A stretch of DNA of 64,000 nucleotides from a virus. The stretch's first letter is position 1. Every line of letters starts with the position of its first letter. Below the pieces are notes generated by a model. The model was given only the letters and a program-made list of their open reading frames with translations, had not been told where the DNA came from and did no database searches. This document shows, piece by piece, positions 3,286 through 51,907 of the stretch. The position numbers and the translations under genes were made by a program. The DNA lies in IMG/VR virus record IMGVR_UViG_3300041409_000157, positions 1 to 64,000 of that record, one strand, 5' to 3'.

Positions 3286-3533
3286 TGCTGATCAATTGAA
3301 ACCAACTGCGCCACCCCACAGGCCGGAATTTTTCCAGCACAGTCGTGCCGCGCATTGATGAGAACCTTGAAACGACTCGTGACGATGTTGTCTGAACAGA
3401 TTAACACCTTGTCCCCCTCAAGAACCGCTGCGCAAAAATCAGGGAAGTGCATGTCGGTAACCATGCTCACGGTGAACTCTTCACCGCAAGACGCGCATTT
3501 GTATTTTACTCCAATGCTCTTTCGCTGTGCCAT
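3282..3533 (-). CDS. Small zinc-ribbon-like protein
   Basis: An 83-residue protein with an N-terminal CASCGEEF pair and later cysteines (FCAAV, LICSD, HDCAGKIPAC). The first pair could form half of a zinc ribbon. No family is recognised. It is the first gene of the group reading leftward from the box at 3559-3569 and couples by ATGA to the glycosyltransferase-like gene. Confidence 0.6.
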   Translation of the reverse strand: MAQRKSIGVKYKCASCGEEFTVSMVTDMHFPDFCAAVLEGDKVLICSDNIVTSRFKVLINARHDCAGKIPACGVAQLVSIDQQ

Positions 3534-3558
3534 GTAAGCAGCATGGCACGATGAAATG

Positions 3559-3569
3559 TGACGTCAACT
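3559..3569 (-). promoter_or_regulatory. TGACGTCA box upstream of the 3533 gene
   Basis: The minus strand carries AGTTGACGTCA, identical over 11 bases to the box at 1721-1731. It lies 26 bases before the ATG at 3533, in a short gap after the end of the head module. A -10-like hexamer is weak (CATGCT, 16 bases downstream of TTGACG). Candidate promoter or operator. Confidence 0.45.
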
Positions 3570-3574
3570 ACTTT

Positions 3575-3706
3575 TCACGCCGGGGTCGTGGTGGTAGTTG
3601 TCGTGGAGTGATCCGTGGTGGTGGTCACCTCAGAGCCGGTCGTGGTGGTGACGCTCCCGCCGGAGGGCGTCTCGCAGGGCGTGTTGATGATGAGGTCGAA
3701 TCTCAT
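3575..3706 (-). CDS. Short Thr-rich protein (43 aa) coupled to the connector-like gene
   Basis: An ATG at 3706 overlaps the TGA of the 820-residue gene (ATGA) and opens a 43-residue frame. It begins MRFDLIINTPCETP and ends in two threonine runs. The threonine runs look like the Thr/Ser linker inside the upstream protein (near residues 690-710), so it may be a leftover or an exchangeable tip of a longer surface protein. No domain is recognised. Confidence 0.5.
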   Translation of the reverse strand: MRFDLIINTPCETPSGGSVTTTTGSEVTTTTDHSTTTTTTTPA

Positions 3707-6165
3707 GCGATGATCTGGAACAGGATTCGGAATCCGCCGGGAGCATCGGGGCCGCCATTGATGTCGTCATACATCACAAGGGAGCAGCAGTTGTCATCGA
3801 AAGTGACATGGCTGAACCTTCCGGTGTAGCTGAACAGGAATCCGCACTGGCCGTCCGGGTTGGTGTTGCTCACCTCATACTCGTAACGTCCTCCACCGAA
3901 GCAGGTCACGCGCGCGTAAGTTCCCTCACTGTCTATCTCCCATGTCCATGGGTCCATTGAGATGTTGGCCATGTTTGCGGAGATGGTGCATGGCCCGGGA
4001 GGATATTCCCCGTCCTCGGTATTCGAGAATATAGACAGCAGCCAGTCTCCCGCGCTGCACGCTCCCGGTGCCGGGCAATCACACGGAGACGGAGTTGTGC
4101 TGGTGGTTGTTGTGCTGGTGGTTGTGGTCGTAGTGGTAGTCGTCGGGTCAGGTGGTGTGAGTGGAGGAATAGCCACGCACCCGCCAACCGAAATACCATG
4201 CCATGAAGCCCCGCTCAAAATCGCCGTCTCGCCCGGCGCGTAGCCAGTCCCCACCGTCAACCCGCTGAGGGTGACATTGGTTGTGCTTCCGTCAGCGGTA
4301 ACCGCCTCAATCTTCCCGAGCACCCACACACCGTCATCCTCAACCAGCGCCCACGTAGCGGTGATCGTGACAGCAGGAACCTCCACTCCGTCTTGAATCA
4401 CCGTAGCCACTTCAAATGACGAGGTGAACCGGTCACCATCAGCCACCGGCTCCTGGCAGGGGTGTCCCACCTGATCCGAGCACTGGGTCCCAATGAAGAA
4501 ATACACCCGCTCGTTGTTTCCAAACTTGACGATGCACTTGTAGTAGGTGTCAGGATCGTAGCCAAGTGTCTCCCCGTAGCAGGTGAATGCGTGCGCCCCG
4601 GCCGCAAACTCACCCACGCTGGTGACGTATTCACCGTGCAGCTTGGAACCGTTCTCGAACATCACCAACGGGAAGGATGCGAAGGTGCCGCCGCCTTGCT
4701 CGACTGGATTAATAAGGTATTGCGTCGCCCAGCACTTTCCGGTGTTCCATATCCCGCTCGTGTCTGTCCGATACACTTCGACGTCAAGAATCTGGCGATT
4801 GGTCGCCATGGACAAATTGAGGTCGAAGATGTGATCCGAGCTTCCGTTGGGAGTAAACACGAACCATGGACCCGCTTGATCCCCAGTGCTGCATCTCCGC
4901 GAAAATGACGATGTATGAACCCCGTCACCCACGTATGGGCTGTAATCCGCATCCGACACCCCGTAAGTCGCCACACTGGTGCATTCCCCACGCACCGCAA
5001 TAGCCCGGATGACCGCATCGGAGGAGAATTGCACCGGACCCGTGTAGCGGAAGCTTGCCCGGGTAGGGATTGAGCCGTCCGTCGTGAAGTAGATGTCGTC
5101 CCCAGCCGTCGCCGTCATCACCACGTAGATGGGGAATGCCACAGTAGATCCCGCCGGAGGATCAAACGTGACACTCGGCACGTCGGGGCACTCCGTGGCA
5201 AGCTGGTCCGCGTTCTGGAGAGTCGCTGCCACAGGGTCCACCTGATCAGCGGGTCCGCCTTGGATGGCCGACGGGATGACCGCCTGCCGGGCATTGCTGC
5301 CTTCACAGCCACGCACGCGAGTTTCCTCACGGCAATCCCGCATCATGCCGCGCCGAGCCTCAATGAAGGAGGCTTGAGCCTGCGCTGCCCCTACATCGTC
5401 CCGGTCGTAATCCTTGAGATGCTGCCACGACACGTAGTAGCGCACAGCACGCTTCAACTGAGGATTGTCCTCCACTAGGTCGTTGTCATCCCACAGACCT
5501 TTGATGCCATCCCACTCAAGGATCACCGTCTCGGTTCTCTGGAGGTATGGCGCAATGTAGAAACGGCCCCGCTCCTGCGCCCACACGCCCCGCTGGGCGC
5601 GTCCGAAGCGGGAATCCGTAGAAACCTGCGGCTGATAGTGATGGCCCAGCGGGAGGGCCGGAAAAGCGAGATACTCCTCGTCGGTCGGAACCGGGTAATC
5701 CGCCCGACGGCAGCCGCAGCCAAACCCGAAGATGCCGCTGAAGTTGGCAAATCCTCCCCCGCAAGTGGAGCAGCTCTTCACCTGCTGCTGGTATTCCAGC
5801 ATCTTGCAGTAGGGCACCTGCTCGTAATACACGCGGGAGCACCAGTTGGTCCACGCGCTGGCAGATTCGAGATGCTTGTCCGGCGTGAGCTGGTCCACTA
5901 CCGACACCCGAACGATCTTGTTCGACATGCTCCCCCAGCCCTGCTGCTGGGGCATGTCCATCACGTTCAACCCGCAGACGTAGAACCTGGAGCAGGCCCG
6001 ATAAAGCTGCGTGTTGTTGTATTGGTAGCAGTCCACCCACCGCTGAATATCCACGAGGGCCTCGACAAAAAACTTGTCGTGGATCGGGACAAGCTCCTCT
6101 GCCTCACCCTCGGGCCAGATGAGGCGGCGAATCTCGTCCTTCAGGTCTGCGAATGTGTAAGGCAT
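3703..6165 (-). CDS. Head-tail connector-like protein with chitobiase-type and Thr-linked C-terminal domains
   Basis: An 820-residue protein. About residues 1-290 have the look of a podoviral tail-tubular/adaptor protein: many aromatic residues, an N-terminal helical part (FADLKDEIRRLIWPEGEA) and a helical end around 250-285. A segment near 325-395 (VTFDPPAGSTV, IYFTTDGSIPTRAS, YTGPVQFSSDAVIRAIAV) matches the chitobiase/hexosaminidase C-terminal type fold, a sugar- or surface-binding module. A Cys-containing beta-rich region follows, then a Thr/Ser linker near 690-710 and a final Cys-rich domain. It lies two genes downstream of the capsid gene. Appended binding domains on a connector suggest a part exposed on the virion; the connector role is inferred from position and N-terminus. 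Confidence 0.6.
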   Translation of the reverse strand: MPYTFADLKDEIRRLIWPEGEAEELVPIHDKFFVEALVDIQRWVDCYQYNNTQLYRACSRFYVCGLNVMDMPQQQGWGSMSNKIVRVSVVDQLTPDKHLESASAWTNWCSRVYYEQVPYCKMLEYQQQVKSCSTCGGGFANFSGIFGFGCGCRRADYPVPTDEEYLAFPALPLGHHYQPQVSTDSRFGRAQRGVWAQERGRFYIAPYLQRTETVILEWDGIKGLWDDNDLVEDNPQLKRAVRYYVSWQHLKDYDRDDVGAAQAQASFIEARRGMMRDCREETRVRGCEGSNARQAVIPSAIQGGPADQVDPVAATLQNADQLATECPDVPSVTFDPPAGSTVAFPIYVVMTATAGDDIYFTTDGSIPTRASFRYTGPVQFSSDAVIRAIAVRGECTSVATYGVSDADYSPYVGDGVHTSSFSRRCSTGDQAGPWFVFTPNGSSDHIFDLNLSMATNRQILDVEVYRTDTSGIWNTGKCWATQYLINPVEQGGGTFASFPLVMFENGSKLHGEYVTSVGEFAAGAHAFTCYGETLGYDPDTYYKCIVKFGNNERVYFFIGTQCSDQVGHPCQEPVADGDRFTSSFEVATVIQDGVEVPAVTITATWALVEDDGVWVLGKIEAVTADGSTTNVTLSGLTVGTGYAPGETAILSGASWHGISVGGCVAIPPLTPPDPTTTTTTTTTSTTTTSTTPSPCDCPAPGACSAGDWLLSIFSNTEDGEYPPGPCTISANMANISMDPWTWEIDSEGTYARVTCFGGGRYEYEVSNTNPDGQCGFLFSYTGRFSHVTFDDNCCSLVMYDDINGGPDAPGGFRILFQIIA

Positions 6166-18322: not shown

Positions 18323-18595
18323 TTACCAACCTCCGGGAACCGGCTTGCCAGCATCCGGATGGGCGCAAAGTGGTGCGCGCTCCTTGCGGGGCAAGCCATC
18401 CTTCCGGGGTTTGAACACCGATTTCCCATCCAAAGCTCGCTTCCAATCATCGTCGGAGATCTCGCGCCCGGCAACCCGACGCGGCCAGCCTGAGTGTAGA
18501 TCGGACCATCGCATTCCGAAGGCTTCGATGGTGGCGCGAGTCCACCCTCCGTTGGCAGTGCGGCACTCGAAGATGCGGTCAATGGTAAGCTTCAC
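18323..18595 (-). CDS. Protein of unknown function (90 aa)
   Basis: A GTG at 18595 overlaps the upstream TGA (GTGA) and starts a 90-residue protein: LTIDRIFECRTANGGWTRAT, then EAFGMRWSDLHSGWPRRVAG and SDDDWKRALDGK. The short Trp-rich N-terminal part recalls phage proteins that end in SGW-x-x-x-hydrophobic motifs, but no family can be named. Confidence 0.55.
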   Translation of the reverse strand: MKLTIDRIFECRTANGGWTRATIEAFGMRWSDLHSGWPRRVAGREISDDDWKRALDGKSVFKPRKDGLPRKERAPLCAHPDAGKPVPGGW

Positions 18596-19341
18596 GACTG
18601 GGCATCCTCCATTTTCGCCGCCAAAGAGGAAACGTAGCTTCGCCAGTTGCGGATGCGCTCCCATCGGTTGCGAAGACTGCTCCAGTGACACCACTTGTTC
18701 CGCAGCAGCTCATCGTAAAGCTCGATCCGGTGCGCCGCAACAAGGGGAGCTTCGGAGTCCAAGAAGTCATCGAATTCAGTCTGACTTGGAACCTCGGACG
18801 ACTTCGGCAATTTGATGCCCCAAAGCCTTCGCTGCTTTTCCTCCTCCGATGGCTTCGCCACCGGCTTGAAAGAACCACCTGTAGATCGAGAAATATCCAC
18901 ACCAACCCGAGTTGGTGTCTCTTTAGTCTCTTCAGTCACTGTGAAGTCTTCATTCTTATGGGAAGTCTTAGTGTCTGGCTTTTCCGTGGCGGGTTTTTTC
19001 CGCTGCGGTGAACTGTGGTTTTCGCGCACCGTCTTGCATGGATTCTGGAATACCGTGTAGACGGTGTGCGAGAACTTCCCATCCTCCCCCTTTTGCACAG
19101 CGGAGATCCACCCAGCCAGCTTCAGCTCGGTGAGGTATTTGTAGAAGGTGTCTCGGCTGATGCTCAGGCACTTGGAGATGTAAACCGCGCTCGGGAAAGC
19201 TGTTTCCCCGTTGGGGGAGCAGTGGGAGCGGATGGCTAGATACACCATCTTGGCACCCATGGACAGATCGGGGTCGAGGATGAAGCTCTTGCGGACTGAG
19301 AAGTCCCAGTCACCCTTGAATGCTACACGGTCTTGTTTCAT
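18592..19341 (-). CDS. Winged-helix DNA-binding protein, replication-initiator-like
   Basis: Start at the ATG at 19341 (MKQDRVAFKGDWDF). The 249-residue protein has an N-terminal helix-turn-helix region (LSMGAKMVYLAIRSHCSPNG, FPSAVYISKCLSISRDTFYK, YLTELKLAGWISAVQKGEDG) of the HTH_36 type seen in phage and plasmid replication proteins. A basic disordered linker and a helical C-terminus (ELLRNKWCHWSSLRNRWERI) follow. It is the first gene downstream of the structured RNA region. A role in replication initiation or transcription control is inferred. Confidence 0.75.
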   Translation of the reverse strand: MKQDRVAFKGDWDFSVRKSFILDPDLSMGAKMVYLAIRSHCSPNGETAFPSAVYISKCLSISRDTFYKYLTELKLAGWISAVQKGEDGKFSHTVYTVFQNPCKTVRENHSSPQRKKPATEKPDTKTSHKNEDFTVTEETKETPTRVGVDISRSTGGSFKPVAKPSEEEKQRRLWGIKLPKSSEVPSQTEFDDFLDSEAPLVAAHRIELYDELLRNKWCHWSSLRNRWERIRNWRSYVSSLAAKMEDAQS

Positions 19342-19489
19342 GGCAGTTTTGGAGTTCTGCCAGGACGGATCGAAATGCCCCCGACCGAAGTCGTCCCAGC
19401 AGGCGTGACTCAGCGTAGGAAACACCGGGGCGGGGGGCGTCGCTTGTCCGGCGGGTCAAATTGATTGTTCCACACTGAGTCACGGAGTC

Positions 19490-19517
19490 AGCGTAGAGGA
19501 TTATTTCAGGCTGTCAA
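19490..19517 (-). promoter_or_regulatory. Promoter-like site before the winged-helix gene
   Basis: On the minus strand, TTGACA (19512-19517, inside CAGTTGACAGCC) is followed after 16 bases by TACGCT (19490-19495). The distance to the ATG at 19341 is about 150 bases, leaving a long leader. The TTGACA lies in a context shared with the recurrent AGTTGAC box. It lies just downstream of the structured RNA. Confidence 0.5.
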
Positions 19518-19544
19518 CTGGCTAAATTCGTCGCGCTTTTCTAC

Positions 19545-20050
19545 TCTCTTACGGCCAGTGCTAGCAGTTACACCACTAGAGCGCGCCAACTAGGCGGGAT
19601 TCCAACCCGCACCTGCCGTCTAAATCTTCTCTCCCCACCAGGACCCCGGGAACCGCTCCAGCAGACAAGCTGGATACATTTGTACGACCAGCAGTCCCCG
19701 AGGCCGGGGTGGGGAGAGTTCGCTGAAGTGAGCAGCGGAAGTCCGGGCGATTTCACCACGGGCCTAGGATGGTGGATCTTTTCGTAGACCGGGCGGAACC
19801 GCTGCTCAACTCAACGAACTCTCAAAGAGCGCCTCGCTGCACGCAGGCAGGGAGGCTTTAGCGGCACGCCGTCTTACGGAGCGACCTGCGAACGTGCCTG
19901 AAAGATTGCCCAGACCACCGTCACCCGTCAGCTTAGGGTGTGAAGCGGAGCCGACAGAAGCACTGGCCAGTGGGCATCTGGTGTTCCAGTGGGACAAGTT
20001 GTTCGTCCGCTTCACAGGGGTGAGACTACACCTCCCCGCACCACCGTCAA
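19545..20050 (-). ncRNA. Large structured noncoding RNA candidate
   Basis: About 500 bases without a credible gene but with many helices. Main ones (plus coordinates): 19629-19636 with 19711-19718 plus 19643-19649 with 19704-19710; 19714-19738 with 19799-19823 (22 of 25 pairs; read as minus-strand RNA two of the three mismatches become G-U); 19831-19835 with 19852-19856; 19863-19868 with 19893-19898 enclosing 19069-free hairpin 19869-19872/19876-19879; 19922-19926 with 19936-19940; 19939-19948 with 20007-20016 (10 of 10) enclosing 19961-19966/19986-19991. The G-U pattern indicates transcription on the minus strand, from about 20050. The 25-base helix and the first helix share 19714-19718, so they may be alternatives. 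Size and setting recall large phage RNAs such as GOLLD and ROOL, but no match was or could be tested. Confidence 0.7.
19551..19619 (-). other. tRNA-like, circularly permuted four-way fold at the end of the structured RNA
   Basis: On the minus strand a 5-base stem with a 7-base loop (19594-19598/19606-19610) copies a tRNA T arm except for one loop base. It is followed, not preceded, by a D-arm-like hairpin containing GTGTAACTGCTAGCAC. Outer bases 19551-19555 and 19615-19619 pair perfectly, where an anticodon stem would close a permuted tRNA. The acceptor-like contact is only CTAG with CTAG. So this is not a normal tRNA gene; it may be a T-loop junction in the larger RNA. Confidence 0.35.
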
Positions 20051-20059
20051 GGATGTTTC

Positions 20060-20452
20060 TCAAGAATTCTTCAAGCTCTCCACCCTCAGCCTGAATTTCC
20101 TCCGCTTCAGCTCCAGCACCACCCGCTCCACGAGCTTCCCTGTATCCCCCGCCACCCACTCCTCAAAGTCGTCCGACCCGGCAATCGCCCCAAGGATCTT
20201 CGCCCGCCATACGGCCGCGTGCGCGCACTCATGGGCAATGCTGTCCAGCGTCAGCCGGTCCCCCGGCAGGTGCAGCTCCGCAAACAAGCCCCTCTCCGCC
20301 ACCCGATGACACTGCCAGCAGCACGCCAGACAGGACCGCGCTCCCGGAGTGACCTTCCTGCGCCACCTCTGCAACGCCTTCAGGCTACCATGCACCCAGA
20401 CTTCGATGTGATGAGTGCTTCGAGAATGTAGGTAGATGGGGAAGTGGGTCAT
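20060..20452 (-). CDS. Putative HExxH metalloprotease-like protein
   Basis: Start at the ATG at 20452 (MTHFPIYLHSRSTHHIEVW). In the 130-residue protein LDSIAHECAHAAVWRAKIL (about residues 70-88) contains HECAH, an HExxH zinc-metalloprotease signature, and SDDFEEWVAGDTGKLVERV supplies a downstream Glu that could be the third ligand. Small phage proteins with this arrangement are known as peptidase-like proteins of unknown substrate. The gene directly precedes the structured RNA. Confidence 0.6.
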   Translation of the reverse strand: MTHFPIYLHSRSTHHIEVWVHGSLKALQRWRRKVTPGARSCLACCWQCHRVAERGLFAELHLPGDRLTLDSIAHECAHAAVWRAKILGAIAGSDDFEEWVAGDTGKLVERVVLELKRRKFRLRVESLKNS

Positions 20453-20453
20453 A

Positions 20454-20663
20454 TCAGATCGTTGAACTGGACGCCTCACGCTGCGCTGCCTTCAAGGCTT
20501 CCCTGCGCCGCTTCATGTAGAGCAACCTCCGACTGCGGTTCCTGCGGTGATACCGCTCTGCCTGGGCCTTTCGATTACCCTTACCCCCACGCGCCCCACG
20601 GCGAGGCTTGGAAGACGCCCCTTGCGCGTCTTCAGGCGCATCTGGTTGAGCGTATTCATCCAC
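20454..20663 (-). CDS. Small Arg/Lys-rich protein
   Basis: From a GTG at 20663 the frame gives 69 residues, very basic (SKPRRGARGGKGNRKAQAER, then YHRRNRSRRLLYMKRRREAL). The frame is open for another 88 codons upstream, but that part reads like non-coding sequence, so the short form is preferred. It would bind nucleic acid by charge. It ends two bases before the next start, which supports it a little. Confidence 0.4.
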   Translation of the reverse strand: MDEYAQPDAPEDAQGASSKPRRGARGGKGNRKAQAERYHRRNRSRRLLYMKRRREALKAAQREASSSTI

Positions 20664-21678: not shown

Positions 21679-21820
21679 GCTTCACTTGCCCCATTGGTTG
21701 GAGGCTTGCCGGGCGTGCGGGCGGGCGTGATTTCCGCCCCCTCTCCCCTGCATTCCCCAAAAAATAAACCTGCATAAAACCCCCGTAAACATTGCCTCGC
21801 CACACCTTTCGCAAAATAAT

Positions 21821-21850
21821 AGTTGCCGTCAGTTTACTTTTCGATATTCT
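21821..21850 (+). promoter_or_regulatory. Promoter-like site for the plus-strand small-gene block
   Basis: TTGCCG (21823-21828) is followed after 16 bases by TATTCT (21845-21850). The -35 part lies in AGTTGCCGTCAG, a variant of the recurrent AGTTGACGTCA box. It stands about 60 bases before the first gene of the block and before the hairpin at 21872-21894. Confidence 0.5.
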
Positions 21851-21871
21851 GAGCAGCGTAACGGTTTTAGC

Positions 21872-21894
21872 GGCTCCCCCCAGTAAGGGGAGCC
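21872..21894 (+). repeat. Intergenic hairpin 1 of the small-gene block
   Basis: Eight perfect base pairs (GGCTCCCC with GGGGAGCC) around a 7-base loop, directly before the GTG start region of the 21913 gene. It is followed by the purine-rich GCGAAAGG that also precedes other genes of the block. Confidence 0.7.
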
Positions 21895-21912
21895 AAAGCG
21901 AAAGGTTCAACG

Positions 21913-22497
21913 GTGAAAAAGCAAAATCCTCAAATAGCAATCTGTCACGGTATTAATCAGCTTCACCCTCGCGAATCATCCTTCACGAGTGGCCGCGATG
22001 AAATCCGGGTGACGATTGGGCGCCTTGACGACACGGATGGAAAGCCCCGCAATTTCAGCTTGTCCAGCATTTCCCCGGGCTCACCGGAATCGCGGATTTC
22101 AACGGGCGGCTGCTTTGCCCGCATTTGGAGCGCCCAGCCTGCGAGCTATCATGTTCCGGGCTCGACTGAGTGCAATTACTTTGTGGCGCACGGCATGGAG
22201 ATTTCACATGGCGACTTGCCTGAATACGAGCACGCCATCCGCGCCTTGAAGCTGATTGCCAAGCGGCAGGCTGGGCAATACGAAACGCGAGGCAATGCTA
22301 CCGATGCAGCGGACGCCATGGGGCGCTGGCTTGAAGCGTGCGGCGTCACGCAGGTTTACTTGCGGCCGGAGAGTGGACGCAACCGGCAATGGCTGACGGA
22401 TGGCGAGTGGCAATGCCTGACGCTGGGGGTGTTCGTCGTGCAGGTGCGGAAGGCTCTGGCGGTTGTGCCGGGTGTTCCCATTGAAGCTTCCCTCTAA
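21913..22497 (+). CDS. Protein of unknown function (194 aa), first of the plus-strand block
   Basis: GTG start at 21913 behind GCGAAAGG. The 194-residue product has an N-terminal region without clear structure and a better-ordered second half with HAIRALKLIAKRQAGQYETR and CLTLGVFVVQVRKAL. Composition (many Ala, Arg, Gly, moderate charge) fits real coding. No family recognised. Similar small unknown genes are frequent on plasmids and in environmental phages. Confidence 0.6.
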   Translation: MKKQNPQIAICHGINQLHPRESSFTSGRDEIRVTIGRLDDTDGKPRNFSLSSISPGSPESRISTGGCFARIWSAQPASYHVPGSTECNYFVAHGMEISHGDLPEYEHAIRALKLIAKRQAGQYETRGNATDAADAMGRWLEACGVTQVYLRPESGRNRQWLTDGEWQCLTLGVFVVQVRKALAVVPGVPIEASL

Positions 22498-24993: not shown

Positions 24994-25196
24994 ACCGCTA
25001 CATGGTAAGCTGGACTCCGAAGCGTAAAAAGTGGACGGAAGCGCAACAGGCTGGTCCGTTTACCTCATTTGACCGTGCCTTTGACTTTGCCCGAAGTGAT
25101 CCAGGGCCGGTCAATGCAAAGTCGTGCACCATCCTGAAAGAGGATGATCACGCAATCAACGCGGGGAAGTTCTTTCTCTGTAATATTGTGAAGTGA
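24990..25196 (+). CDS. Protein of unknown function (68 aa)
   Basis: GTG at 24990 overlaps the previous TGA (GTGTGA). The 68-residue product begins NRYMVSWTPKRKKWTEAQQA after the start residue and has TSFDRAFDFARSDPGPVNAK. Compact alpha/beta; no family recognised. Confidence 0.55.
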   Translation: MNRYMVSWTPKRKKWTEAQQAGPFTSFDRAFDFARSDPGPVNAKSCTILKEDDHAINAGKFFLCNIVK

Positions 25197-25206
25197 TTCC
25201 GCCTCT

Positions 25207-25233
25207 CTCCCTCCGGCGCACTGCCGGAGGGAG
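25207..25233 (+). repeat. Intergenic hairpin 5 of the small-gene block
   Basis: CTCCCTCCGGC (25207-25217) pairs perfectly over 11 bases with GCCGGAGGGAG (25223-25233) around GCACT, followed by TCGGCGC. It is a close copy of hairpin 4. No T run follows, so it is not a standard terminator. Confidence 0.75.
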
Positions 25234-25279
25234 TCGGCGCAACCAAGCGCACACAAACCACCAAACGAAAGGCAATCCT

Positions 25280-25800: not shown

Positions 25801-26532
25801 ATGACCACGCAGATATTCGCAAGCCTCGCTGAATTCATGAAGCGCGAGGACAAAACCATCAACGGCATAACGCGGGAATTCGCAGACGAAAATCCCGGAT
25901 GGGATTCAGAGCGCGAAAATGAGGGGTGCTGGAACTGCTACGACTGCTCCGGCTGCTCCCGCTGCTCCGACTGCTCCCGCTGCTCCGGCTGCTCCGGCTG
26001 CTCCCGCTGCTCCGACTGCTCCCGCTGCTCCGGCTGCTCCGGCTGCTCCCGCTGCTCCGGCTGCTCCGGCTGCTACGGCTGCTACCGCTGCTACCGCTGC
26101 TCCGACTGCTCCGGCTGCTCCGGCTGCTACGGCTGCTCCGGCTGCTCCGGCTGCTCCGGCTGCTCCGGCTGCTACGGCTGCTACGGCTGCTACCGCTGCT
26201 CCGGTGAGAACAAGAGCCCGCTGCCAAAGGTTCCGGTTCTGGAAAACATCCACCAAGCTATCCTTCAAGCGTCCTCCAAGCCTGACGCGCTCAACATGAG
26301 CAATTGGCACACGTGCGAGACGACCCACTGCCGGGCTGGGTGGGTGGTGCATCTTGCCGGAGAGCCGGGGAAGGCGCTGGAGCGGGAAACCTCCACGCTG
26401 TTCGCCGCAATGATGATTTACGGCGCGTCTTCCAAGATAGGCGTTTCACCGGTGCGACTCTACGAAAATAACGAGAAAGCCATGGCCGACATGCAACGCT
26501 GCGCGGAACTTGAAGCGAAAGGAGCCGCGTGA
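25801..26532 (+). CDS. Protein with 31 tandem Cys-x-x repeats
   Basis: A 243-residue protein in three parts. Residues 1-42: MTTQIFASLAEFMKREDKTI and following, a short alpha/beta start. Residues 43-135: 31 consecutive triplets Cys-(Ser/Tyr)-(Gly/Arg/Asp), except the first two (CWN, CYD). Residues 136-243: a C-terminal domain with SNWHTCETTHCRAGWVVHLA, which I recall from other phage and plasmid proteins with variable N-terminal repeats. Repeats with Cys every third residue could bind metal densely or build a beta-helix or fibrous rod; neither is shown. Overlaps the next gene by four bases. Confidence 0.8.
   Translation: MTTQIFASLAEFMKREDKTINGITREFADENPGWDSERENEGCWNCYDCSGCSRCSDCSRCSGCSGCSRCSDCSRCSGCSGCSRCSGCSGCYGCYRCYRCSDCSGCSGCYGCSGCSGCSGCSGCYGCYGCYRCSGENKSPLPKVPVLENIHQAILQASSKPDALNMSNWHTCETTHCRAGWVVHLAGEPGKALERETSTLFAAMMIYGASSKIGVSPVRLYENNEKAMADMQRCAELEAKGAA
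25927..26205 (+). repeat. Tandem 9-base repeat array coding Cys-x-x
   Basis: Thirty-one units of the form TGC-(TCC or TAC)-(GGC, CGC or GAC). Nearly all variation is at two positions, the middle base of codon 2 and the first or second base of codon 3. Four-of-six or more frames are open through the array because of its composition, so only the frame continuous with both flanking domains is taken as coding. Confidence 0.9.
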
Positions 26533-32183: not shown

Positions 32184-32602
32184 AGCAATCCCGCTTCCTT
32201 GGCAATCATCGGGTGGTCATGCGCGAAACGGTGGGCATTCCGGCAGACACCTGTCCACCCAGCTTCATCCAGCAAACGCTTCCCACTGCGGCCAAAGCGG
32301 TGGTGAATATCCACCGCCCGGTGATTCGCCCCATGCTTCACCGCGTCGGCAAATGCCATCGCGTTGTGGATCTGGAAGTCGGCCAGGCCGCTGGCCTTCA
32401 GGTCCAGCTTGAGGATGGCTCCGCGAATAGCCTTGCAGGCATAACAGTAAGGCCGCTTCGCAAGGAACTTCTCCTTCTGCTCCCGGTAGGTGGCCATCTT
32501 GGCGGTCATGCTGGCGGAACGCTGGCGGAGGGTGCGCTTGGGCTTAGGCGCAAGCTGGCGCGGCTTGAGGCCGCCGGGCATTGATACCCACGGGGCTTTC
32601 AT
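32180..32602 (-). CDS. HNH-type endonuclease-like protein
   Basis: A 140-residue protein. A basic N-terminus (LKPRQLAPKPKRTLRQRSAS), then RPYCYACKAIRG (zinc pair), then VDIHHRFGRSGKRLLDEAGW and VCRNAHRFAHDHPMIAKEAG. The His-His followed by Asn/His in this spacing fits an HNH (beta-beta-alpha metal) nuclease core. Could assist recombination or packaging, or be a free-standing mobile nuclease. Confidence 0.7.
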   Translation of the reverse strand: MKAPWVSMPGGLKPRQLAPKPKRTLRQRSASMTAKMATYREQKEKFLAKRPYCYACKAIRGAILKLDLKASGLADFQIHNAMAFADAVKHGANHRAVDIHHRFGRSGKRLLDEAGWTGVCRNAHRFAHDHPMIAKEAGLL

Positions 32603-39714: not shown

Positions 39715-40491
39715 TTATGCCGCATCATCACGCCCTCGCAGTTTCGAGAGCCTTTGAGCAGCGATTGTGCAGTATTCATGGTTGATTTCGATGCCGATGG
39801 ATTTGCGTCCTTCCAGACGAGCGGCCACCAGTGTTGAGCCGACGTCGCAGAACGGGTCGAGCACGGTTTCCCCGATCACGGATGATGATTCGATGAGTTG
39901 TCGGAGCAGCATCACTGGCTTCTCGGTTGGATGCTTTGTCACCGCGCCGCCCTGAGTTCGCTGCACCCTTAACACGCTGCCCTTCCGCATTCTGGCGGAC
40001 AGGTTTCCATAGCCTTTGGCGCGGTTCGCGGCACTGAGTTCATACACACCGAAGGTTATCGGCTCGTGCTCCGTTCCCCACGGCGATTGCAGGTCCCCCA
40101 TGCCGATGATTCCTTTGTCCCAGATGAGTTCGGTTACTCCGCACAGTGGCAGGTTTCCAATTTCCAGCTTCCCGAAGATGTAGGCGTGTCGGCCTCTGCG
40201 GAGTTGGCGGATGGCCGTTTCCAGCACAGCGAGCACACCGCCCGCATCTACTGCCTTGTCGTTTGCGATGGCATCGAAGCGTTGTTTGCGATTGTTGCTC
40301 CGGTATTCCACGCCGTAGGGCGGGTCAGTCACCAGCACGTCAGCGGTCACGTTTGGCAGCACATCGGCAGCGTCGGCGCAGTAGAGCGTTGTCCATTCGT
40401 CCTCGTAGAATGCGGCATAACCCGACGCTGGAGCGAATGACTGCCCCGCCACGTTGTCCGCGAGTTCGAGAGTCTGTTGAGGAGTAGTCAT
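39715..40491 (-). CDS. DNA N6-adenine/N4-cytosine methyltransferase (beta-class order)
   Basis: A 258-residue protein. VLVTDPPYGVEY (DPPY at 56-59, motif IV) comes before TEKPVMLLRQLIE and ETVLDPFCDVGSTLVAARLE (motif I, with Asp in the usual Gly position of DPFxGxG), giving the beta-class order. It would methylate an exocyclic amine of A or C in a short target site. The target domain lies between (about 60-190). Probable role: protect phage DNA. Stop-start overlap with the SbcC-like gene. Confidence 0.85.
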   Translation of the reverse strand: MTTPQQTLELADNVAGQSFAPASGYAAFYEDEWTTLYCADAADVLPNVTADVLVTDPPYGVEYRSNNRKQRFDAIANDKAVDAGGVLAVLETAIRQLRRGRHAYIFGKLEIGNLPLCGVTELIWDKGIIGMGDLQSPWGTEHEPITFGVYELSAANRAKGYGNLSARMRKGSVLRVQRTQGGAVTKHPTEKPVMLLRQLIESSSVIGETVLDPFCDVGSTLVAARLEGRKSIGIEINHEYCTIAAQRLSKLRGRDDAA

Positions 40492-42374
40492 ACAGTCCTC
40501 ACATCCACCAGTTCCACGCCCTCCACCCCCTCAAGTTCCTTACCCCGCACAATGCACCCAAGGCATTGCGTGATGACACCCGACTCAATCGCCTTGCGGA
40601 TGTCCTGGAAGAGCGGCCCAAGGCGCTTGGCCTCCACGTTGTCCAGATTATCCAGCAGGAGCACCCGCAGCGGAGAACCGCTCGCACCAGCCAGCGCCGC
40701 GCACACCGCCGCTGAAGCAATCATGCGGTCGCTCTCGTTAAAGCTACGCAGGGCGATGAACTTGCGGCCCTTCCACCGGCCGATGCGCTGCTCGTGATAC
40801 GCCAGCGGGGTTTCGAGCACGGTCCCGGCGATGGCGTTTGCGCTGGCGAGGATTGGCCCGATGGCTTTGTCCACGGCTTCCGCCTGAAGCTCATCCACCA
40901 GCTTCTTCACCTCGCGCCACGCCTCGGACTCTTTCGCCACGCGGTCAGCCTCCTCCGCTGCCTTGAGCTTGGCGGCAATTTCACCCTTTGCGGCATTGGC
41001 TTGGCGGACTTCCAGGGTGAGGGGCTGGATGCGCTGCTGGAGAGCGACAATCTCGTTCTCGCATTCGTTCAGCCCGCTGTCTGGAGCCAGCTCAACGACG
41101 TCAGCCAAAGATTCCAGCTCCCCGCGCAGGCGTTCAGCCACCCGTTCATCGGCATCCAGTTGCTTCAGATGGTCCTGCAAGACCCGCAGGTCAGCCTTCA
41201 GAGCCTCAAACGTGCTGGCCGCACCGCGCCCAGAGGACTCAAGGTCCTTCACCAGTCGCACTCGTGAAGCATGAGCCTCAACGGAAACCTTCCGCTCCTG
41301 CTCCAGCTTCAGAAGCACGGCGTCGCTCCACCCCTCGGTGGCGGTGCCGCAGAGCGGGCAGGAAATCTTGTTGTCCAGATGGCTCTGCTTCTTCTCGTTG
41401 TCCAGCAGGGCCGCAGCCAGAGCGGCAATCGTTGCGCGCTCAGTGTGGATGGACAACTTGATCTCGGACACCCTATCTCCTGCGCTGCACACGCACTGCT
41501 CAAGTAACGCGATCCTGACCAGCAGTTCCTCCCGGCGTTCAGTGACTGCCGCACTCCCCGCCAGATGCGTCTCCAGCTCCACCTTCCGGGCATACCGGGT
41601 CCACGCCTGCTGGAGGGCCGATTCCACCGCCTGCTTCCGTGCGGCCAGCTCGGAGAGCTTCCGGTTCAACTCCGCCAGTTGCTTCTCCGCAGCGCTGTTC
41701 ACGAGCTGCTTGGCTTGGGCGCGAAGCTGGGTGAGTCCTTCCAGGGTTGCCGTCATGCGCTTGGCCGCAGCCTGCGTCTCGCTGCACCGCTTCTTGGCCA
41801 CCTCCGCGAAGGTATCCAGCCATTCAGGTGCCGTGACGCTGCCGCTGAGGGTCTTCCAGTGGTTGAGGATTTCATCCGTCACCTTGATGACGGCTTCCTG
41901 CGCGGCAGTGTCGTGCTCCTTCAACTCCAGCGTGCGCGCCTTGGCAGCCAGCACCGGCCCGAACTTCTCCTCGCAACCGCTCAGGCGGAAGGCCAGCTTC
42001 ACGCGCTCCCGGTCGGAGAGCTTGAAGTATTCGCTGGCGTCAATACAGAGGGGGATGACCTTGCCGGGGAGCTTGCCCTGCTCGATGCACTTCACCGTCT
42101 TGTCATCGCCACTCCAAGTGCGGGACATGGAGGTGCCATCGCTGAACACTGCGCTGACCCCCATCGTGGAGCCGCTCCCGTAGGCTTCCAGCAGGTCGCA
42201 GTTCATGCGCTTCACCTCAGCGTTGGGGTGATAGCCGAACAGCGCGAGCGGGACCGCGTCGAGTCGTGCCGACTTGCCGTGCCCGTTGGGGGCGTGGAAC
42301 ACGGTGATTGGCGACAGTTCGTGTGTGAAGGAAAGACCCTTCAGGCCGGTCGCGGAGATGTGGGTGATGTTCAT
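40488..42374 (-). CDS. SbcC/Rad50-like ATPase
   Basis: Start set at the ATG at 42374 (MNITHISATGLKGLSFTHEL), where the conserved domain begins; the frame is open to 42641 through a repeat. The 628-residue protein has APNGHGKS at 28-35 (Walker A), long coiled coils (about 170-300 and 370-480), a CPLCGTATEGW zinc-hook-like turn near 305, and LRVLLLDNLDNVEAKRL (Walker B) near 575. This is the Rad50/SbcC ABC-type ATPase plan. No SbcD nuclease is visible, but the nearby VRR-NUC could act in its place. Likely role in DNA ends and recombination. Confidence 0.82.
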   Translation of the reverse strand: MNITHISATGLKGLSFTHELSPITVFHAPNGHGKSARLDAVPLALFGYHPNAEVKRMNCDLLEAYGSGSTMGVSAVFSDGTSMSRTWSGDDKTVKCIEQGKLPGKVIPLCIDASEYFKLSDRERVKLAFRLSGCEEKFGPVLAAKARTLELKEHDTAAQEAVIKVTDEILNHWKTLSGSVTAPEWLDTFAEVAKKRCSETQAAAKRMTATLEGLTQLRAQAKQLVNSAAEKQLAELNRKLSELAARKQAVESALQQAWTRYARKVELETHLAGSAAVTERREELLVRIALLEQCVCSAGDRVSEIKLSIHTERATIAALAAALLDNEKKQSHLDNKISCPLCGTATEGWSDAVLLKLEQERKVSVEAHASRVRLVKDLESSGRGAASTFEALKADLRVLQDHLKQLDADERVAERLRGELESLADVVELAPDSGLNECENEIVALQQRIQPLTLEVRQANAAKGEIAAKLKAAEEADRVAKESEAWREVKKLVDELQAEAVDKAIGPILASANAIAGTVLETPLAYHEQRIGRWKGRKFIALRSFNESDRMIASAAVCAALAGASGSPLRVLLLDNLDNVEAKRLGPLFQDIRKAIESGVITQCLGCIVRGKELEGVEGVELVDVRTV

Positions 42375-42382
42375 AATTATTC

Positions 42383-42573
<191 letters not shown>

Positions 42574-42597
42574 AAGATTCGGAGAGAATTGCGGCGT

Positions 42598-42951
42598 TCA
42601 CTTCTGACTCCTTGGCATTGAGAATGCGACTTGGTGGGCATCCAGCACAGCGCCTCGCCCGATGATTACGCGTGCGGAATTCGGGTATGGCTCCACCTCG
42701 GAGAACTCGCCCTTTTCGATGGCTTGAGCGAAACGCCCATCGTCAGCGATCCACGCGGCGTCAGTGAGCACCAGCTCATGCTCATGCACTTCGACGAGCG
42801 TGCCGGTGTAGTGATGAGTCACGGTGCGGATGAAGTAATTCTTCCCGACAACGTATGGAGACGTGTCGGGTGTAACTGCCTGCTTAGAGATTGGGCCGAA
42901 CAGGGCCTGCACCTCCATGACTTGACCGATGGTGAGTTCAGAGATTTTCAT
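42598..42951 (-). CDS. Conserved phage protein of unknown function (117 aa)
   Basis: A 117-residue protein with SPYVVGKNYFIRTVTHHYTG, VHEHELVLTDAAWIADDGRF and YPNSARVIIGRGAVLDAHQV. I recall this protein (VGKxYxIRTVT, LVLxDAAWIADxGRF) as a frequent unnamed phage gene of early regions. Function unknown. Confidence 0.75.
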   Translation of the reverse strand: MKISELTIGQVMEVQALFGPISKQAVTPDTSPYVVGKNYFIRTVTHHYTGTLVEVHEHELVLTDAAWIADDGRFAQAIEKGEFSEVEPYPNSARVIIGRGAVLDAHQVAFSMPRSQK

Positions 42952-42981: not shown

Positions 42982-43797
42982 TCAAAACGGAACTTCAGAA
43001 TCGGCTTCCCCGTTGTTCGCCTCAGCATCCGCCGCGGCGTGATCCGCGGGCGGCTCATCCTGCTCGGGCTCCGGCTGCGGCGTGCTGGCCGGAGCGGCAC
43101 CCGTCACAGCCTGCTCCGTCTTGGTGCGCGCGAAGTATTGCTTGAGGTAGTTCTGGAGGGTGACGTCGAGGGCTTTGGCCTGAGCTTCGGCTTCCTCAGA
43201 GGCTGGCGTGAGGGAGAACACCGGGGTGCGATACTTCACCGCCCCGGTCTTGCCCTCAGCGAAGGCCGTGATGCGGATGGCCTGAAGGTAATACTCCTTG
43301 ATGTCCGCTTCACCCACCCGCCGGGTGGCGCACTTGTAGCGGAACTCCGACCACGCATGGAGCGCGGCACCCTTGAAGCGGATGCTCCCAAGCTGGAGCG
43401 GCCCTTTCGGGTCTGGCCGGTAGGCGATGTAGAGGTTCGCGTTGAAGCGGCCATCCGCAGCGTTCACCACGTCCTTGATCTGGGAGTAGAGGCCGGAGGC
43501 GATGACGCCACCCTTGAAGGACTTCACGACCATCACATCGGCGCGCACGTCACGCACCTCGTTGGAGGTGATGCCACACTTGTGCTTGCCGTCGTAGCCG
43601 TCGATGCAGGAAAGCTCGTCGATGAGCAGGAAGGTGACCGGCAGCGGGACGCGGCGGCGTGCGCCGGGCTTGGCGTCGCCACTGTTCTGGACGGACTTGT
43701 CCCAGAAGGAAAGCATTCCGCCATCGGCCCCGCCTTCCCACTCGAACCAGCGGGTGCAGGGGTGAATTACTTGTGACTGTGGAGCTGAACGACTCAT
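42982..43797 (-). CDS. Single-stranded DNA-binding protein candidate
   Basis: A 271-residue protein: beta-rich N-terminal two thirds (VPLPVTFLLIDELSCIDGYD, SGLYSQIKDVVNAADGRFNA, VKYRTPVFSLTPASEEAEAQ) and an acidic, Pro/Ala-rich tail ending SEVPF. An acidic tail with a terminal hydrophobic dipeptide is the mark of phage and bacterial SSB proteins. It sits between recombination-type genes. The assignment rests on tail, size and context. Confidence 0.65.
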   Translation of the reverse strand: MSRSAPQSQVIHPCTRWFEWEGGADGGMLSFWDKSVQNSGDAKPGARRRVPLPVTFLLIDELSCIDGYDGKHKCGITSNEVRDVRADVMVVKSFKGGVIASGLYSQIKDVVNAADGRFNANLYIAYRPDPKGPLQLGSIRFKGAALHAWSEFRYKCATRRVGEADIKEYYLQAIRITAFAEGKTGAVKYRTPVFSLTPASEEAEAQAKALDVTLQNYLKQYFARTKTEQAVTGAAPASTPQPEPEQDEPPADHAAADAEANNGEADSEVPF

Positions 43798-44615: not shown

Positions 44616-45098
44616 CTACCGGCGTGCGCGGGCCGTCCAGTAGGAGTCCAATGCGCGGCGGATTTCACGGGCCAGAGCGTCCCCGGTAAGTTCGGATTTA
44701 TTGATGAATCCCGAGGCTCCCAGCGCACGCATCTCCTTCTCCACATCGTAGTAGCCGGAGACGCAGAGAAATGGCAGCTCGTAGGAATGCTCCCGCCACA
44801 TCCTCACTAAATCCGCTGCCGTGCCGCCATCCAGCCTGTAGTCCAGCACGGCCAGATCGTAACACCTGGTGGCAATCATCGCCATGGCCTGCCCCACCGA
44901 CTCCGCCATCTCCACTTGGCAGGAGCGCAGCGCCGGAAGCCGGAATAAATGCGTGAAGCACAGGCGCATGTCGTATTCGTCCTCCACCACGAGCACGCTG
45001 GCAGGCTCCACCTTTTCCGACGTGTCCCCAAACACTCTCCGCTCGCACTCATGGGCGGCGCGGGACAGGAAATGCGAATGCGACAGCGCGGTGGTCAC
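44616..45098 (-). CDS. Stand-alone response-regulator receiver protein
   Basis: GTG at 45098 overlaps the upstream TGA. The 160-residue protein has a 30-residue leader and a receiver domain: SVLVVEDEYDM (acid pair E39-D40), LAVLDYRLDGG (phospho-acceptor Asp86), LCVSGYYD (Ser114), FINKSELTG (Lys134). No output domain follows and no histidine kinase is in the window. A CheY-like protein in a phage lysis/virion region could intercept host signalling; that is inference. Downstream neighbour on the transcript is a gap before 44547. Confidence 0.88.
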   Translation of the reverse strand: MTTALSHSHFLSRAAHECERRVFGDTSEKVEPASVLVVEDEYDMRLCFTHLFRLPALRSCQVEMAESVGQAMAMIATRCYDLAVLDYRLDGGTAADLVRMWREHSYELPFLCVSGYYDVEKEMRALGASGFINKSELTGDALAREIRRALDSYWTARARR

Positions 45099-45394
45099 TT
45101 CCAAAAGTGGTTGAAGATGAAGCTTACCGCAACCCCTCCACCGGAACCAATCAGGCAGCACATCCAGTAGGCCCCCTTGGCCTGCTGCTTGGCTTCCTCG
45201 TGCTTGGCCACCACCGTCATCAGGCTGTTCACATTCTCCGTCAGGGCGTGAAGCTTAGTCGTCAGGACGCGCACGGATTCCTGCAAGCCCACCCGACCGC
45301 CATCAGCGGAGGATTCTAGGGCGTTGAGAATCTTGAGCAGCGTCTCCTGATGCTGGTGCTCCAAGGCGGTGATGCGGCGCTCTAAGTCGTTCAT
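45095..45394 (-). CDS. Coiled-coil protein with C-terminal membrane span (XhlA-like)
   Basis: A 99-residue protein. Residues 1-70 form a coiled coil (MNDLERRITALEHQHQETLL, TKLHALTENVNSLMTVVAKH); residues about 76-95 (AYWMCCLIGSGGGVAVSFIF) are one membrane span. This N-coil/C-span plan is that of hemolysin XhlA-type lysis accessory proteins; an i-spanin would be the reverse. It follows a lipoprotein gene with an ATGA overlap and belongs to the lysis cluster. Confidence 0.65.
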   Translation of the reverse strand: MNDLERRITALEHQHQETLLKILNALESSADGGRVGLQESVRVLTTKLHALTENVNSLMTVVAKHEEAKQQAKGAYWMCCLIGSGGGVAVSFIFNHFWK

Positions 45395-51867: not shown

Positions 51868-51884
51868 AGTTGACGGCAGTTTGG
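51868..51884 (+). promoter_or_regulatory. AGTTGACGGCAG box before the giant-protein gene
   Basis: AGTTGACGGCAGTTTGG stands 24 bases before the ATG at 51908. It is the plus-strand version of the recurrent box; the CAGTTTGG flank is like CACTTTGG at other sites. No good -10 is visible. Confidence 0.45.
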
Positions 51885-51907
51885 TTCCGGTTCAACCTTC
51901 AATCACC

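What the first reader, a model, noticed from the sequence alone, without database searches (positions are those of the whole stretch)
19545..20050. A ~500-base structured RNA with no matching gene, probably transcribed leftward
At least eight helices are present, several perfect: 10 of 10 pairs (19939-19948/20007-20016), 15 pairs with one bulge (19629-19649/19704-19718) and a 25-position helix (19714-19738/19799-19823). In the last, two of three mismatches become G-U pairs only when read as minus-strand RNA, which both supports selection on structure and gives the strand. The sequence lies between two minus-strand genes and no credible ORF covers it. Known phage RNAs of this scale are GOLLD and ROOL (established as large ornate RNAs in phages); whether this is one of them or new is open.
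Basis: partly seen in the sequence, partly recalled or inferred. Interest (0 to 1): 0.85.

Follow-up and report, generated by a model that had tools for sequence, protein, structure and literature searches.

The report
Phage RNA with a tRNA-mimic domain
A bacterial virus of unknown host appears to make a strongly folded, roughly 400-base RNA that carries a tRNA look-alike domain of the kind found in bacterial 'Y RNAs', but without the usual Y RNA partner protein, which suggests a new way for a phage to engage its host's tRNA-handling or RNA-decay machinery.

Summary
The helices described are real, and the minus strand is right. It folds far better than shuffles: z -6.4 for 19545-20050 and -9.8 for the core 19629-19856, against -3.2 and -5.6 on the plus strand. 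The 5' part, 19910-20050, is no better than chance, so the supported RNA is about 19504-19903. No Rfam family matches: not GOLLD, ROOL, OLE or HEARO.

Bases 19619-19551 (minus) form a circularly permuted tRNA-like module (T-arm, capped acceptor-like stem, D-arm, closing stem) like that of bacterial YrlA Y RNAs. A covariance model built only from other phages' modules finds it at 31.5 bits, E 6e-6. It keeps the tRNA 15-48 contact as A-U and swaps the elbow pair 19-56 from G-C to C-G, a compensated double change.

Of 33 other phage records with such modules, 24 encode Ro60/TROVE; this 72-kb record does not. The large multi-arm body is absent from the other phage loci tested. Best reading: a Ro-less, enlarged Y-RNA-like scaffold or decoy. 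No homologue was found, so covariation of the body is untested.

The parts
19504..19903 (-). Supported extent of the structured RNA (about 400 nt)
   Evidence: Minus-strand z -5.0 for 19504-19903, 0 of 60 shuffles as good; closed by the 8-bp helix 19903-19896/19511-19504 (UUUCAGGC/GCCUGAAA, mean pair probability 0.95)
19551..19619 (-). YrlA-like circularly permuted tRNA module: closing stem ACGGC 19619-19615 / GCCGU 19555-19551
   Evidence: Model R1 from other phages' Y RNA modules: 31.5 bits, E 6e-6; Rfam YrlA RF02553 16.1 bits, E 0.053 for the record, aligned helix for helix; descriptor: 1 hit in the window, 0 in 1200 simulated windows
19594..19610 (-). T-arm of the module, GCGGG-UUGGAAU-CCCGC; position 56 is G instead of C
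   Evidence: Sequence; position 56 is C in 27 of 27 other phage modules
19576..19593 (-). Acceptor-like stem CUAG/CUAG closed by a 10-nt loop, so no free 3' end and no CCA
   Evidence: Sequence; equivalent stem covaries in other phages
19558..19573 (-). D-arm of the module, GUGU-AACUGCUA-GCAC; position 19 is C (swapped elbow partner of G56), A15 pairs with U48
   Evidence: Sequence; pair 15-48 is C-G or U-A in 27 of 27 phage modules
19629..19718 (-). Arm D, long hairpin 19718-19708/19639-19629 and 19705-19690/19657-19642
   Evidence: Pair probabilities 0.96-0.98
19720..19817 (-). Arm C, long hairpin 19817-19810/19727-19720 and 19808-19799/19738-19729
   Evidence: Pair probabilities 0.95-0.99; the G-U pairs fix the strand
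19818..19830 (-). Arm B, short hairpin GCUCU/AGAGU
   Evidence: Pair probability 0.78
19831..19856 (-). Arm A, hairpin GCCUC/GAGGC with inner CUGC/GCAG
   Evidence: Pair probability about 1.0
19615..19624 (-). UUUAGACGGC: pairs with GCCGCUAAA (19865-19857) in the minimum-energy fold, which excludes the module's closing stem; a second UUUAGC at 19526-19521 can pair with GCUAAA instead. Possible two-state element.
   Evidence: -188.5 against about -179 kcal/mol, tertiary contacts not counted
19939..20016 (-).
   Evidence: 19910-20050 has z 0.02

Best explanation
A non-coding RNA of about 400 nt is read leftward between two minus-strand phage genes. Its 3' part is a Y-RNA-like (YrlA-type) tRNA mimic: T-arm, capped acceptor-like stem and D-arm in permuted order, folding into a tRNA elbow that cannot be charged or decode. 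Its 5' part is a rigid multi-arm body, standing where Y RNAs have the stem that holds the Ro60 protein. I think it works as a scaffold or decoy: the tRNA-like elbow docks a host tRNA-elbow-binding protein (by analogy with YrlA, PNPase or a tRNA-modifying enzyme), and the body holds or sequesters it, without Ro. Shown here: the predicted structure, the strand, the module with its compensated tertiary contacts, and the lack of TROVE in the record. Inferred: that body and module form one transcript, that it is expressed, and what it binds.
For: Folding z-scores and strand asymmetry. Module found at E 6e-6 by a model trained only on other phages, independently the best hit in the Rfam scan of that stretch, and absent from 1200 simulated windows. 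The elbow pair is swapped in a compensated way and the 15-48 pair is kept. Phage records with such modules usually encode Ro60/TROVE: 18 of 20 and 6 of 13 further, less strictly chosen records, which shows that the pattern finds genuine Y RNAs. Arm D ends 9 nt before the module, in the same orientation. YrlA's tRNA-like domain is a substrate of DusA and TruB and is described as binding PNPase (PMC8394870).
Against: No homologue, so no covariation for the body. Rfam YrlA score is far below the gathering cut-off (16.1 against 69). No Ro60 in the record. The free minimum-energy fold prefers GCCGCUAAA/UUUAGACGGC and breaks the module's closing stem, by about 9 kcal/mol. No sigma-70-like promoter was found nearby. 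The module's own folding energy is ordinary (z -0.6).
Confidence: 0.5

Rival explanations
1. An ordinary Y RNA (YrlA-like) that uses a Ro60 protein of the host or one encoded in a missing part of the phage genome; the big hairpins are a lengthened Ro-binding and linker region.
For: Module matches YrlA and the phage Y RNAs; most such phages carry Ro60; the record may be an incomplete fragment.
Against: Here the neighbours are a replication initiator and small unknown genes. The flanking stem motifs of the other phage Y RNAs (GGUUAC... / ...ACCGA) are not seen. Their upstream flanks are not so structured (z -3.7 to +1.8 against -6.5).
Confidence: 0.2
2. Two things side by side: an independent set of strong hairpins (long leader, processing or terminator hairpins, or a DNA element for the adjacent replication initiator) and a separate small Y-like RNA.
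For: The body's energy signal is largely carried by arms C and D; the neighbour is a replication initiator (PHROG 270, E 9e-13); no homologue proves one unit.
Against: Zero to one unpaired base between arms A to D, a shared closing helix and minus-strand G-U pairs fit one RNA. The strand asymmetry argues against a purely DNA element.
Confidence: 0.2
3. Decayed remains of tandem tRNA genes or of a tRNA attachment site: a T-arm from one tRNA followed by the D-arm of the next.
For: Tandem tRNA junctions also score 31-50 bits with model R1.
Against: No tRNA by ARAGORN or Rfam; no tRNA halves outside the module; a 5-bp stem encloses it; the 19-56 elbow pair is swapped in a compensated way across the two loops, which makes no sense between different tRNAs; no tyrosine integrase in the record.
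Confidence: 0.06
4. A highly diverged GOLLD, ROOL, tmRNA or other known large RNA.
For: Size and phage setting; GOLLD and ROOL often lie near tRNA islands (PMC12286853).
Against: No Rfam match even at E 10 with lax filters; ARAGORN finds no tmRNA; the acceptor-like end is capped.
Confidence: 0.04

Closest known systems
YrlA Y RNAs (Rfam RF02553) with Rsr/Ro60
   Same: Permuted tRNA-like module: closing stem, T-arm GCGGG/CCCGC, capped acceptor-like stem and D-arm in the same order
   Different: No Ro60 in the record; Rfam score below cut-off; Ro-binding ends (model positions 1-21 and 90-114) not matched; swapped elbow pair; large multi-arm body; about 400 nt against the 90-150 nt given for YrlA (PMC8394870)
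Phage Y RNAs in records with TROVE genes (e.g. L131, L146, L177, L198, L219)
   Same: Same module, found by the model built from them
   Different: Those records carry Ro60 and often 2-3 tandem RNAs; C56 and GG in all 27 aligned; upstream flank not comparably structured
GOLLD / ROOL
   Same: Large, highly structured phage RNA of unknown function
   Different: No model match; no tRNA genes in the window; contains a tRNA mimic rather than neighbouring tRNAs

Membership tests
YrlA / bacterial Y RNA | Permuted tRNA-like effector module | tested here: met
YrlA / bacterial Y RNA | Score above Rfam RF02553 gathering cut-off | tested here: not met
   16.1 against 69 bits. 23 other phage loci with such modules, most with Ro60, also yield no YrlA match at the cut-off, so this test is strict
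YrlA / bacterial Y RNA | Ro60/Rsr (TROVE) gene associated | tested here: not met
   No PF05731 in the 72-kb record; the record may be incomplete and the host could supply Ro60
YrlA / bacterial Y RNA | Ro60-binding basal stem | tested here: inconclusive
   Rfam model ends not matched; no stem like that of the other phages seen by eye
GOLLD, ROOL, OLE, HEARO | Match to the Rfam covariance model | tested here: not met
   None at gathering or at E up to 10
tRNA / tmRNA | Recognised by ARAGORN or Rfam, with open acceptor end | tested here: not met
   acceptor-like stem is capped
Circularly permuted tRNA gene | 7-bp acceptor stem and an anticodon arm | tested here: not met
   Only 4 acceptor pairs; the closing stem stands in the anticodon-stem position and there is no anticodon loop (sequence)

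The most novel reading that the evidence does not exclude
A first example of a class of large phage RNAs that combine a Y-RNA-type tRNA mimic with a rigid multi-arm RNA body replacing the Ro60 protein, possibly switching between a closed state (GCCGCUAAA/UUUAGACGGC) and a tRNA-like state, to capture host tRNA-binding or RNA-decay proteins.
Probability: 0.3. Interest if true: 0.8.

Novelty: new variant of a known kind. Interest (0 to 1): 0.58.

Why it matters
Y RNAs are thought to work by tethering Ro60 to an effector. A phage Y-like module without Ro60 and fused to a large folded body would show that the tRNA-mimic module works on its own and is reused as a building block. The survey made on the way shows that YrlA-like RNAs with Ro60 genes are common in phage records and escape the Rfam cut-off, so the function of phage Ro60/Y RNA systems becomes testable on many examples.

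Tried and rejected
Homologues by neighbouring proteins: terminase, its Walker B region, the replication initiator and the 139-aa neighbour in IMG/VR, terminase in GTDB contigs and in 388 genomes of the phylum of an Opitutaceae centre, terminase and portal in GenBank phages: none. By RNA sequence: phages, plasmids, 388 genomes: only chance-length matches. By pattern: exact D-arm and swapped-elbow patterns found nothing; a wider one gave 5 loci that look like tRNA genes, tRNA-like pieces or chance and share at most about 25 nt with the query. The choice of phylum (Verrucomicrobiota) was only a guess from protein style. tmRNA: the stretch GCAAUC...UAA looked like a tag but ends in no usual tag sequence, and no tmRNA model matches. 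RNase P: a short CR-I-like word (GGAAGTCCGGGC) on the plus strand, no model match. Attachment site: no tyrosine integrase. RtcB repair operon: no RtcB. Coding: not supported by codon usage, although neighbouring small genes also score weakly.

Full report
Setting. The window is 64 kb of a 72,116-base viral record. It has no tRNA genes and no Rfam match at gathering score. The region lies between a minus-strand gene of unknown function (20060-20479) and a minus-strand replication initiator (18592 to 19344 or 19425; HTH_36, PHROG replication initiation). The gap is more than 600 bases. All six frames score negative on codon usage from the phage's clear genes. The phage is isolated: terminase and portal have no relatives in 50,697 phage records, and the terminase has none in IMG/VR by peptide patterns.

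Is it structured, and on which strand? Yes, on the minus strand. The 621-nt minus strand folds at z -5.0 and the plus strand at -2.3. With 60 shuffles: 19545-20050 minus -6.35, plus -3.2; 19504-19903 minus -5.0, plus -4.1; 19629-19856 minus -9.8, plus -5.6; but 19910-20050 minus 0.02. Flanking genes give between -1 and +0.8. In a scan of 510 250-base windows over both strands, 19501-19750 minus ranks third by energy gain. The supported RNA is therefore about 19504-19903.

Body. The minimum-energy fold has a closing helix UUUCAGGC/GCCUGAAA (19903-19896/19511-19504), then four arms with almost no unpaired base between them: A 19856-19831, B 19830-19818, C 19817-19720, D 19718-19629. The arms meet in a junction closed either by GCCGCUAAA/UUUAGACGGC or, if the tRNA-like module forms, by a rearranged set including GCUAAA/UUUAGC. 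The first is about 9 kcal/mol better without tertiary contacts. The two copies of UUUAG make a two-state RNA conceivable; this is inference.

Module. The only structured lead in Rfam that makes biological sense was YrlA, RF02553, at 19619-19548 minus: 16.1 bits, E 0.53 for the short stretch against all families and 0.053 for that family over the whole record. The alignment matches every helix: closing stem ACGGC/GCCGU, T-arm GCGGG-UUGGAAU-CCCGC, capped stem CUAG-10 nt-CUAG, D-arm GUGU-AACUGCUA-GCAC. A descriptor of this topology has one hit in the window and none in 1200 simulated 64-kb windows.

Independent test. Many are tandem tRNA genes, but 32 matches overlap no recognised tRNA, and most of these read as permuted modules. 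In 18 of 20 of the records first chosen a TROVE/Ro60 gene is present, and in 6 of 13 further records chosen less strictly (the fourteenth of that call was a repeat). These are therefore phage Y RNAs, several in tandem copies, and in the 23 loci scanned none reaches Rfam's YrlA cut-off. I aligned 27 of these modules (A1): 97% of cells paired, 12 of 16 pairs with changes on both sides, covariation score 0.55 against 0.17 in shuffles and at most 0.16 in slid controls. A covariance model from them (R1), which contains nothing from this window, finds the window element at 31.5 bits, E 6e-6; the next window hit has 6 bits. Caveat: tandem tRNA junctions in bacterial loci score 31-50 bits with the same model (that these are such junctions is my reading of their place in rRNA-operon loci), so the score alone does not separate the two.

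Tertiary contacts separate them. In the 27 phage modules, positions 48 and 15 are C-G 21 times and U-A 6 times without exception, and position 56 is always C with GG in the D-loop. The window has U48 and A15, keeping the first contact, and G56 with C19 in place of C56 with G19. Both sides of the elbow pair changed together. This is one sequence, so it is a single compensated event, but it is not expected between unrelated tRNA halves or in random DNA.

What is missing. No TROVE domain, RtcB or tyrosine integrase in the record. The upstream flanks of 17 other phage modules have z from -3.7 to +1.8, against -6.5 here, so the big body is not a general feature of phage Y RNAs. L121 and L179 show that other Ro-less module RNAs exist (84% identical over 170 nt), but their shared element is short and unlike this one.

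Mechanism. In published work YrlA's basal stem holds the Rsr ring and its tRNA-like domain is modified by DusA and TruB and described as binding PNPase (PMC8394870); Wolin and colleagues also suggested that the domain might inhibit an anticodon nuclease competitively (PMC7790460). The element here has no anticodon arm, so a decoy for anticodon nucleases is unlikely; a ligand for elbow-binding proteins is more likely. I commit to a Ro-independent scaffold or decoy with the tRNA elbow as the docking site. Structured RNA on the minus strand: about 0.93. YrlA-like module: about 0.9. One molecule with the body: about 0.7. The proposed function: about 0.3.

Known or new. It has a Y RNA module but fails two Y RNA tests (Rfam cut-off, Ro60 in the record), so I file it as a new variant of a known kind, not as a member of YrlA. 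Y RNAs in mycobacteriophages were reported before (Chen et al. 2014, as cited in PMC12282133), so phage Y RNAs as such are known. Whether this one founds a class depends on homologues, which I could not find.

Noticed in passing
L117, L124, L125, L126, L131, L133, L138, L146, L150, L165, L171, L177, L198, L212, L219, L229, L231 and others: Many IMG/VR phage records carry YrlA-like permuted tRNA modules, often in 2-3 tandem copies and usually with a Ro60/TROVE gene in the record; none of those scanned reaches the Rfam YrlA cut-off. Several have an anticodon-like hairpin (e.g. loops CUGUUAA, CUGCUAA) just before the T-arm.
   Followed up: partly
L121:3640-3704 and L179:13449-13513: Two phage contigs share a 170-nt element, 84% identical, containing the permuted tRNA module; no TROVE gene was found in either record: another Ro-less module RNA.
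   Followed up: partly
L127:5223-5275 and L160:11679-11731: Permuted module directly after tRNA-like sequence, no TROVE gene in either record.
   Followed up: no
window 25801-26532 (+): ORF with a long cysteine-rich CSGCSGCYGC repeat, no Pfam match.
   Followed up: no
window 40488-42641 (-): SbcC-like ATPase ORF whose N-terminal part holds a long Arg/Glu/Pro/Leu repeat (EPELEPEREPELE...).
   Followed up: no
window 42982-43797 (-): Protein with a PHROG 6706 match whose only phage relatives by tblastn are 52 mycobacteriophage records (38% identity to the best).
   Followed up: partly
window 51881-61348 (+): Single ORF of 3155 aa; the first 1840 residues have no Pfam match.
   Followed up: no
window 44616-45161 (-): ORF with a response regulator receiver domain, unusual in a phage.
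   Followed up: no
window 19001-19250 (+), 25001-25250 (+), 21751-22000 (+), 32251-32500 (+), 3501-3750 (-): Other 250-base windows with strongly better-than-shuffled folding; not examined.
   Followed up: no
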